Source: a virus
IMG/VR virus record: IMGVR_UViG_3300029922_000874
Coordinates: 1 to 25,080 of that record
DNA: 25,080 nt
Reading direction: 5' to 3' (one strand)
A program made the position numbers and the translations under genes. The notes under the pieces were generated by a model. The model was not told where the DNA came from and did no database searches. It saw only the letters and a list, made by a program, of their open reading frames with translations. Positions within the stretch are counted from its first letter, which is position 1. Every line of letters starts with the position of its first letter. Below, one piece after another: positions 23,358 to 25,080 of this stretch.

Positions 23358-24335
23358 TTATTCAAAAAAATCAGAATAAGTGTTTATCTTGCGAGTGGCC
23401 GACTCAATTGAGTTCCAGTTTGATAATCGCGAAAAAAGGTTCTCAATTTTCTTATCCACCACAGCGGCGATCATAGCCTCATTATCAAATGGTAATTTGG
23501 TAAACCAATCTGGCAAATACACTTCATCTGTTGGATAGGCAACAGAAGACATATCCAGGTTGTTTTCTTTCATTGGACAAACGACGCACTTCATACCATC
23601 AACGATTCTGGTCGAAACCCTGTCCTTATTGATATCCCGCAGTGTGTTCCAATTGATGGCGGCGCGCACATGACCTGGCACCCGATTACCTTTTCCTTTC
23701 TTGATCAAGTCGTCGTAGTAAGTCAACTTATTGACTCGCTTTGGTGTTCCTTGTTCTGGTAAGGGTAATGCTCTAAACTTCTCTTTGAATTCATTGATCA
23801 TTTGTATTATTTTTTGTTCAGTACCATCATTCAACAATTCCAAAAGAATGGTTTTTAGGAACTTCTGGCAAACTACTGGGGTGTCACTTCTGCGAAGGTC
23901 AAGTCCCATTGCCTTAAGTTTTGGTTCTGAAAGATACTTGCCATCTTTGTAATAATTCAAAATGGCATATCGTTTTTTCGTAATATACAGGGCTTTGGTT
24001 CCAACAGTTTCACATGATCCGCGAATCAATTGTCCAAACTGTTCTGGACAATTGAAGTTTTTCTTCATAAAATCTGGAAACGATGCATTTACCTTATCTC
24101 CAATCGCTGTATAAAGATTGACTGCAATTTCCTTGCTCCATTCTGTTTCACCAGAATCCACCATTGGTTTCATCATGGGCCATGCCGAGAATTGACTCGA
24201 ATTATGAACTAAAATATTATTTGCAAAAAACCAATTATGATGTTTTTCTGGTGAGCAAATACCTATGTCGTATACATACTCATTTTGATAGTTGTCAAGT
24301 TTTTGTATTGATTTTATTTTTACTTTTTCAACCAT
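23358..24335 (-). CDS. 43: DNA polymerase (gp43-like) C-terminal half fused to a split-intein C-fragment
   Basis: Residues 1-45 (MVEKVKIKSIQKLDNYQNEY and following, to NWFFANNILVHN) form a typical split-intein C-fragment ending His-Asn, with Ser46 as the +1 residue. Residues 46-325 are the C-terminal part of a T4-type family B polymerase. YITKKRYAILNYYKDGKYL, EPKLKAMGLDLRRSDTP and the C-terminal TYSDFFE tail (as in T4, ending in the clamp-binding segment) are recognisable. The break falls at motif C, probably between GDTD and S. The ATG overlaps the endonuclease stop by 16 bases in another frame with GAGGA upstream. The N-terminal half must lie beyond the right edge; trans-splicing would restore the enzyme. 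Confidence 0.88.
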   Translation of the reverse strand: MVEKVKIKSIQKLDNYQNEYVYDIGICSPEKHHNWFFANNILVHNSSQFSAWPMMKPMVDSGETEWSKEIAVNLYTAIGDKVNASFPDFMKKNFNCPEQFGQLIRGSCETVGTKALYITKKRYAILNYYKDGKYLSEPKLKAMGLDLRRSDTPVVCQKFLKTILLELLNDGTEQKIIQMINEFKEKFRALPLPEQGTPKRVNKLTYYDDLIKKGKGNRVPGHVRAAINWNTLRDINKDRVSTRIVDGMKCVVCPMKENNLDMSSVAYPTDEVYLPDWFTKLPFDNEAMIAAVVDKKIENLFSRLSNWNSIESATRKINTYSDFFE

Positions 24336-25080
24336 TTTACAACATCCTCAACTATTTTATTTGGTTTTGCATCCCAATCTTGTTCCCATATATAGTATAC
24401 ATCGTATCCTAATGATTTCGCTAACAAATATTTTTCTCTGTCTTTATCCCAATGTTCCTTTGCAGTTTTACCAGTTTTTGCATTGAAATTATCTGCTGTG
24501 TAAACTCGCGGGTCCATATGCCAAAAAGTTCCTTGAAAATCCACTAACTTTTTACCGATACCACAATCAAAATTATATTTTCTATCCCTTGATATTGATA
24601 TAGCTCTTTGGATATTTGGGAAATGTTTTTGTATCTCTTCTACTAATAGTGTTTCTTTTTTACTTACGTTTTTTCCATCAGAGTGCGCCCATTTTTTACG
24701 CCAGTTATAAAACTTAGAAGTACCTTCGTCTATACCGTATTGTTGTATAAAATAGTCCAAGGAACAAGTAAATTTCTGCCTATCGATATAATCGCACCAA
24801 AATGCTAATCCTTCTATTTTACCATGTCGTTCAATACAATTTTGTAATGTTGTAGCTCTATCGGCGTTATAGGAATCAAAGGTGTCTTTATTCCAACCAT
24901 ATTTTTGCTTCTTGTATTCAAAGGTGTTAGATTTGGCTTGCCTATGACGATATTGTTCCCATTTAGATGAACCTTCGACCTCTCCCCACAATTTTATAAG
25001 TTTGTCTTTTGTTACACCATTAGATGATCGCAATTTATTACATATAATTGGACAGTTTGGATACTTTGTTTTATATTCTG
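24320..25080 (-). CDS. Vsr-like (EDxHD) homing endonuclease within the split polymerase gene, 5' partial
   Basis: The reading frame stays open to the window edge, so the start is outside; a TTG at 25033 is not a convincing start. Three related helical units have the pattern .G..EG...W..Y..RQ: LWGEVEGSSKWEQYRHRQA, RHGKIEGLAFWCDYIDRQ and QYGIDEGTSKFYNWRKKW. Then comes a Vsr-like nuclease domain: KKETLLVEEIQKHF (catalytic Glu), FDCGIGKKLVDFQGTFWHMD (Asp and His) and EHWDKDREKYLLAKSLGYDV (Asp), ending in YYIWEQDW. Such endonucleases are known between halves of genes broken by split inteins in phages. It ends overlapping the intein C-fragment start. Confidence 0.87.
   Translation of the reverse strand, partial: EYKTKYPNCPIICNKLRSSNGVTKDKLIKLWGEVEGSSKWEQYRHRQAKSNTFEYKKQKYGWNKDTFDSYNADRATTLQNCIERHGKIEGLAFWCDYIDRQKFTCSLDYFIQQYGIDEGTSKFYNWRKKWAHSDGKNVSKKETLLVEEIQKHFPNIQRAISISRDRKYNFDCGIGKKLVDFQGTFWHMDPRVYTADNFNAKTGKTAKEHWDKDREKYLLAKSLGYDVYYIWEQDWDAKPNKIVEDVVKWLKK

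What the first reader, a model, noticed from the sequence alone, without database searches (positions are those of the whole stretch)
23358..25080. DNA polymerase gene broken by a split intein with an intervening Vsr-like endonuclease
The polymerase C-terminal half starts with a 45-residue intein C-fragment with its own ATG, overlapping a separate endonuclease gene in another frame. This is the 'fractured gene' arrangement known for several phage genes, here in an essential replicative polymerase and apparently at the catalytic motif C (GDTD|S). The two halves would be non-functional until trans-spliced. Small natural split inteins of this type (similar in pattern to gp41-1 and NrdJ-1 fragments) are often very fast.
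Basis: partly seen in the sequence, partly recalled or inferred. Interest (0 to 1): 0.76.

Follow-up and report, generated by a model that had tools for sequence, protein, structure and literature searches.

The report
Split-intein phage DNA polymerase with endonuclease
A phage's DNA polymerase gene is cut at its active-site motif by a two-piece self-splicing protein element with a selfish DNA-cutting enzyme gene in between; this is a new example of an arrangement already published for other phages, and one half of it lies just beyond the end of this sequence.

Summary
On the minus strand, ORF 23358-24335 begins with a 45-residue intein C-fragment (own ATG, blocks F and G, ...NNILVHN^S). It continues as the complete C-terminal part of a T4 gp43-type family B polymerase. 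Its start overlaps by 16 nt a Vsr-like endonuclease gene (24320-25078), which runs off the contig end. The polymerase N-half and intein N-fragment are therefore not in the 25,080-bp IMG/VR fragment and were not seen. Comparison makes them very likely: of 80 IMG/VR loci carrying a related endonuclease, 77 have a motif-C polymerase half plus intein N-fragment upstream and 76 also have the C-fragment downstream. The predicted endonuclease structure matches Vsr (Z 12.5) and the EDxHD homing endonuclease I-Bth0305I (Z 11.8). The arrangement is known in this very gene and at this point: Aeromonas phages (Aes123 PolB1 split intein, trans-splicing shown in vitro, crystal structure), Campylobacter phage CP21 and Pseudomonas phage MIJ3. 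Local oddity: the window's endonuclease has Asp where 69 of 69 relatives have Glu. Verdict: new member of a known kind, modest interest.

The parts
24201..24335 (-). intein C-fragment (45 aa, own ATG): block F VYDIG, block G NNILVHN; last residue Asn45, penultimate His44
   Evidence: closest PDB sequence by phmmer is the PolB16 intein, weak
23358..24200 (-). C-terminal part of a T4 gp43-type family B DNA polymerase (C-extein), first residue Ser+1 = Ser of motif C (inferred GDTD^S), natural stop
24320..25078 (-). Vsr-like homing endonuclease gene, 5' end cut off by the contig end; about 60-80 N-terminal residues missing by comparison with relatives
24683..25039 (-). repeated helical segment of the endonuclease (residues 14-132), likely DNA-binding
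   Evidence: AlphaFold2 model mean pLDDT 90.9; function inferred
24323..24667 (-). Vsr/EDxHD-type nuclease domain (residues 138-252)
   Evidence: structure match to Vsr 1cw0 Z 12.5 and I-Bth0305I 3r3p Z 11.8
24320..24335 (-). 16-nt overlap of endonuclease stop and start of the C-half gene
24346..24349 (-). GAGG, possible ribosome-binding site 10 nt before the C-half ATG
   Evidence: sequence read directly; function inferred

Best explanation
This is the right-hand two thirds of a 'fractured' phage polymerase gene. A naturally split, Ser-dependent intein of the PolB motif-C type interrupts gp43 between GDTD and S. A Vsr/EDxHD-type homing endonuclease gene sits between the two intein fragments. 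The two polymerase halves are translated separately, the C-half probably coupled to the endonuclease gene. The intein fragments associate, excise themselves and join ...GDTD to SSQFSAW..., restoring the active site. The endonuclease would cut intein-free gp43 alleles in co-infecting phages so that repair copies the whole cassette. Shown here: C-fragment with its catalytic residues, polymerase C-part, adjacent endonuclease with Vsr fold, recurrence of the gene order in relatives. Inferred: the unseen N-half, splicing in this phage, cleavage and homing.
For: Anatomy. Family B polymerase. Vsr-like nuclease by profile and by fold. 77 of 80 loci with this endonuclease type have a polymerase motif-C/intein-N ORF upstream, 76 also have the intein-C ORF downstream. 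Same architecture annotated in Aeromonas phage Aes144, with a 17-nt overlap against 16 nt here. Trans-splicing of the homologous Aes123 PolB1 split intein shown in vitro (PMC11923092); CP21 PolB1 is another characterised relative (PMC12707363). Intein and endonuclease DNA is AT-rich relative to the polymerase DNA.
Against: The N-half is not in the data. The endonuclease has Asp180 where 69 of 69 distinct relatives have Glu, and Thr184 where 60 of 69 have Asp, so it may be weakened or dead. No experiment exists for this phage. The three endonuclease-bearing loci without a detectable split intein (L078, L082, L083) show that the endonuclease alone does not prove one, although here the C-fragment is seen directly.
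Confidence: 0.93

Rival explanations
1. The polymerase halves work as two subunits without splicing; the endonuclease merely split the gene and the intein C-piece is a relic or tag.
For: Split gp43A/gp43B of Aeromonas phage 25 co-purify and are active without an intein (review PMC2988022). L082 has the same endonuclease type with no intein and the C-part starting just before GGDTDS.
Against: The intein C-fragment keeps block F Asp, the His-Asn end and Ser+1. Without splicing, 45 foreign residues would sit on the catalytic motif.
Confidence: 0.04
2. Remnant of a dead element: the N-half or intein N-fragment is lost or broken and another polymerase replicates the phage.
For: N-half not in the data; endonuclease differs at an otherwise invariant Glu.
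Against: C-half frame is intact to its natural end with conserved polymerase sequence; intein junction residues intact; relatives keep both halves.
Confidence: 0.02
3. Assembly artefact joining unrelated pieces at the contig end.
For: The contig ends inside the endonuclease; no overlapping contig was found by exact match of the last 40 bases.
Against: Same gene order with near-identical overlap length in independently sequenced isolates (Aes144, KP13-7) and in dozens of contigs.
Confidence: 0.01

Closest known systems
Aeromonas phage gp43B1 / VSR endonuclease / gp43B2 (Aes144 JN377900; Aes123 PolB1 split intein)
   Same: same gene, same GDTD^S point, Vsr-like endonuclease between the halves, 17-nt overlap of endonuclease and C-half, 39-aa intein C-fragment ending ...VHN^S
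   Different: endonuclease 27% identical (tblastn); Aes gp43 is additionally split once more upstream; splicing measured there, not here
Pseudomonas phage MIJ3 / PA5oct split DNA polymerase B intein
   Same: closest C-half by sequence (45% identity); same insertion point; jumbo phages (PMC6892783)
   Different: the endonuclease between the halves is a different, Hef-like enzyme with zinc-finger-like repeats
Klebsiella phage KP13-7 / phiKp_21 polymerase
   Same: Vsr-like endonuclease (38% identity) between polymerase halves, 20-nt overlap
   Different: intein inserted two residues earlier, GD^TDS, Thr+1; not annotated as such in GenBank
PolB16 OarG split intein (8cpn)
   Same: PolB intein with N-extein SGDTD, Ser1 and Ser+1; best PDB sequence match of the window's intein C-fragment (weak, E 0.11; PMC10189870)
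   Different: atypical split (15-aa N-fragment)
I-Bth0305I (EDxHD homing endonuclease) and E. coli Vsr
   Same: nuclease-domain fold (Z 11.8 and 12.5)
   Different: not intein-associated; low sequence identity (19% and 14%)

Membership tests
Fractured gene (split intein plus free-standing endonuclease gene) | host gene resumes behind an intein C-fragment with its own start codon | tested here: met
Fractured gene (split intein plus free-standing endonuclease gene) | endonuclease gene between the two intein fragments, Vsr-like family | tested here: met
   adjacent to the C-fragment; Vsr fold. The other side is off the contig
Fractured gene (split intein plus free-standing endonuclease gene) | host-gene N-half followed by an intein N-fragment upstream | not testable with these tools
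   contig ends at 25080; no overlapping contig found; present in 77 of 80 relatives
Class 1 PolB motif-C intein (Aes123 PolB1 type, Ser1/Ser+1) | block F Asp, block G His-Asn, Ser+1 as the Ser of motif C | tested here: met
   YVYDIG..., NNILVHN^SSQFSAW aligned with MIJ3 NNILVHN^SCYFTAW
Class 1 PolB motif-C intein (Aes123 PolB1 type, Ser1/Ser+1) | Ser1, motif NX His, block B His | not testable with these tools
   N-fragment off contig; in relatives Ser at the junction and [RK]H upstream of block B are usual
EDxHD / Vsr-like homing endonuclease | Vsr-type nuclease fold | tested here: met
EDxHD / Vsr-like homing endonuclease | conserved acidic and His residues of the nuclease domain | tested here: inconclusive
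   His187 and Asp213 kept, and the first Asp kept by eye (FDCGIG against FDFGRN of L036); Asp at position 180 instead of Glu (69/69), Thr at 184 instead of Asp (60/69). Which of these are catalytic was not mapped
T4 gp43-type family B DNA polymerase | sequence match to the polymerase C-terminal region | tested here: met

The most novel reading that the evidence does not exclude
The cassette is past its mobile phase: the endonuclease is inactive (Glu to Asp at a position otherwise invariant, Asp to Thr nearby) and the split intein persists because trans-splicing makes polymerase activity depend on assembly of two products.
Probability: 0.08. Interest if true: 0.5.

Novelty: new member of a known kind. 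Interest (0 to 1): 0.27.

Why it matters
It adds a diverged member (endonuclease at most about 40% identical to any relative found) to the PolB split inteins, a group valued as cysteine-independent protein-ligation tools. More generally, the comparison shows that one endonuclease family sits almost exclusively in phage polymerases, with the inteins entering at neighbouring points of the catalytic motif C (GDTD^S, GD^TDS, and one case just before CDTDS).

Tried and rejected
Single-protein scan of viral contigs with the C-half gave no relative. Exact search with the last 40 bases found no overlapping contig in viral or genome collections, so the N-half could not be recovered. The Dassa 2009 paper itself is not held. 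One paper search combining 'split intein', 'gp43' and 'homing endonuclease' found nothing. The initial regex missed C-fragments in some loci, which the HMM recovered. The endonuclease tree clusters insertion points but is a quick tree with many weak branches, so no number of site switches is claimed. The 'Ser1 in 81 of 81' count is partly by construction (the junction pattern required S); the exception is L028, which looks like Cys1 at another point. The weak best PDB hit of the intein piece (E 0.11) is quoted only as consistent, not as proof.

Full report
Source. The window is a complete 25,080-base linear IMG/VR virus record. Gene content (portal gp20, head maturation protease, gp43, RNase H-like exonuclease) and best matches to jumbo phages such as Atu_ph07, Phosso and PA5oct point to a large T4-like myovirus. 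It is a fragment.

Observation. On the minus strand, ORF 23358-24335 (325 aa) starts with ATG. Residues 1-45 form an intein C-fragment with block F (YVYDIG) and block G (NNILVHN), followed by Ser. An HMM from relatives scores it at E 6e-12; Pfam Intein_splicing is below cut-off but aligns to the model end. Residues 46-325 are the end of a family B polymerase and reach a natural stop. The other ORF, 24320-25078, overlaps the start by 16 nt in another frame and is open at the contig end. The intein piece (24% GC) and endonuclease (33%) are AT-rich against 40% in the polymerase part.

Endonuclease. A profile of seven relatives finds E. coli Vsr as its best PDB match (E 0.005). An AlphaFold2 model from 41 related sequences (mean pLDDT 90.9) has helical repeats followed by a nuclease domain that aligns with Vsr (Z 12.5, 112 residues, 2.8 A) and with I-Bth0305I (Z 11.8, 94 residues, 2.5 A) (Foldseek ranks 1, 3 and 4, all with E above 0.001). 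I-Bth0305I is the type member of the EDxHD family (PMC3943268). Against 69 distinct relatives, the window's enzyme keeps His187 and Asp213 but has Asp180 for an invariant Glu and Thr184 for a common Asp. Thr184 also occurs in two relatives; Asp180 in none. Whether this impairs cutting is not known.

Relatives. Scanning IMG/VR with the endonuclease profile gave 80 loci. In 77 the ORF before the endonuclease ends in an intein N-fragment behind polymerase motif C, and in 76 the ORF after it starts with an intein C-fragment and continues as polymerase. The insertion point is GDTD^S in 44, GD^TDS in 31 and before CDTDS in one; L020 (counted under GDTD^S) has both of the first two. Several loci are near-copies, so these are not 80 independent events. 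The three loci with no intein detected (L078, L082, L083) are still in polymerase genes. In relatives the N-fragment is about 119 aa long (median), starts with Ser, and has the Arg/Lys-His of motif NX in 74 of 81 hits (the Ser is partly required by the pattern used).

Known cases. Aeromonas phage Aes144 is annotated as gp43B1 with N-intein, VSR endonuclease, gp43B2 with C-intein. The Aes123 PolB1 intein from this group trans-splices in vitro at an ultra-fast rate in its active fraction and has a crystal structure (PMC11923092). CP21 PolB1 and two metagenomic PolB inteins were characterised in PMC12707363; CP21 has a Vsr-like endonuclease in between. MIJ3 was reported with a split polymerase B intein (PMC6892783). 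Its endonuclease is called HNH there, but the sequence resembles Hef/Vsr-type enzymes (by eye). The PolB16 intein sits behind SGDTD with Ser1/Ser+1 (PMC10189870). Uninterrupted motif C in Atu_ph07 (NDTDSAYF) shows what an empty site looks like.

Mechanism. Two precursors are made; the C-half start overlaps the endonuclease stop and has a GAGG 10 nt upstream. By class 1 intein chemistry (established knowledge), Ser1 attacks the GDTD carbonyl, the chain moves to Ser+1 (residue 46), Asn45 cyclises and the polymerase is joined. The endonuclease would spread the cassette into intein-free gp43. Only the C-side anatomy and the nuclease fold are shown here.

Verdict. Observation confirmed, interpretation supported with corrections (unseen N-half, Ser not Cys, not a first case). 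A new member of a known kind.

Noticed in passing
window 6876-8033 (-), inside portal gene 6165-9071: A contiguous intein of about 386 aa with an HNH-type endonuclease region in the T4-like portal protein gp20, inserted just before GRGSKVEQLPGG; PA5oct portal is uninterrupted there. A second intein in the same 25-kb fragment.
   Followed up: partly
window 20460-21833 (-): TnpB/OrfB-type IS605 family gene next to structural genes.
   Followed up: no
window 14414-15364 (+): Free-standing homing-endonuclease-like gene with repeated Cys/His segments (PHROG 559), similar in layout to the endonuclease in the MIJ3 polymerase.
   Followed up: no
L020 4306-7287: Two inteins two residues apart in polymerase motif C: a split one with endonuclease at GD^TD and a complete mini-intein at TD^S.
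   Followed up: partly
L028 1282-3975: Related split intein and endonuclease at a third point, directly before CDTDS, apparently Cys1/Cys+1.
   Followed up: partly
L082 2626-6746 (also L083): Same endonuclease type splits the polymerase just before GGDTDS with no detectable intein; possibly a two-subunit polymerase.
   Followed up: partly
L011 1458-5996; L073 and L074: Block B-like stretches appear in both polymerase halves of L011, and the intein N-region of L073/L074 is spread over both halves, so it looks duplicated or unusually split.
   Followed up: no
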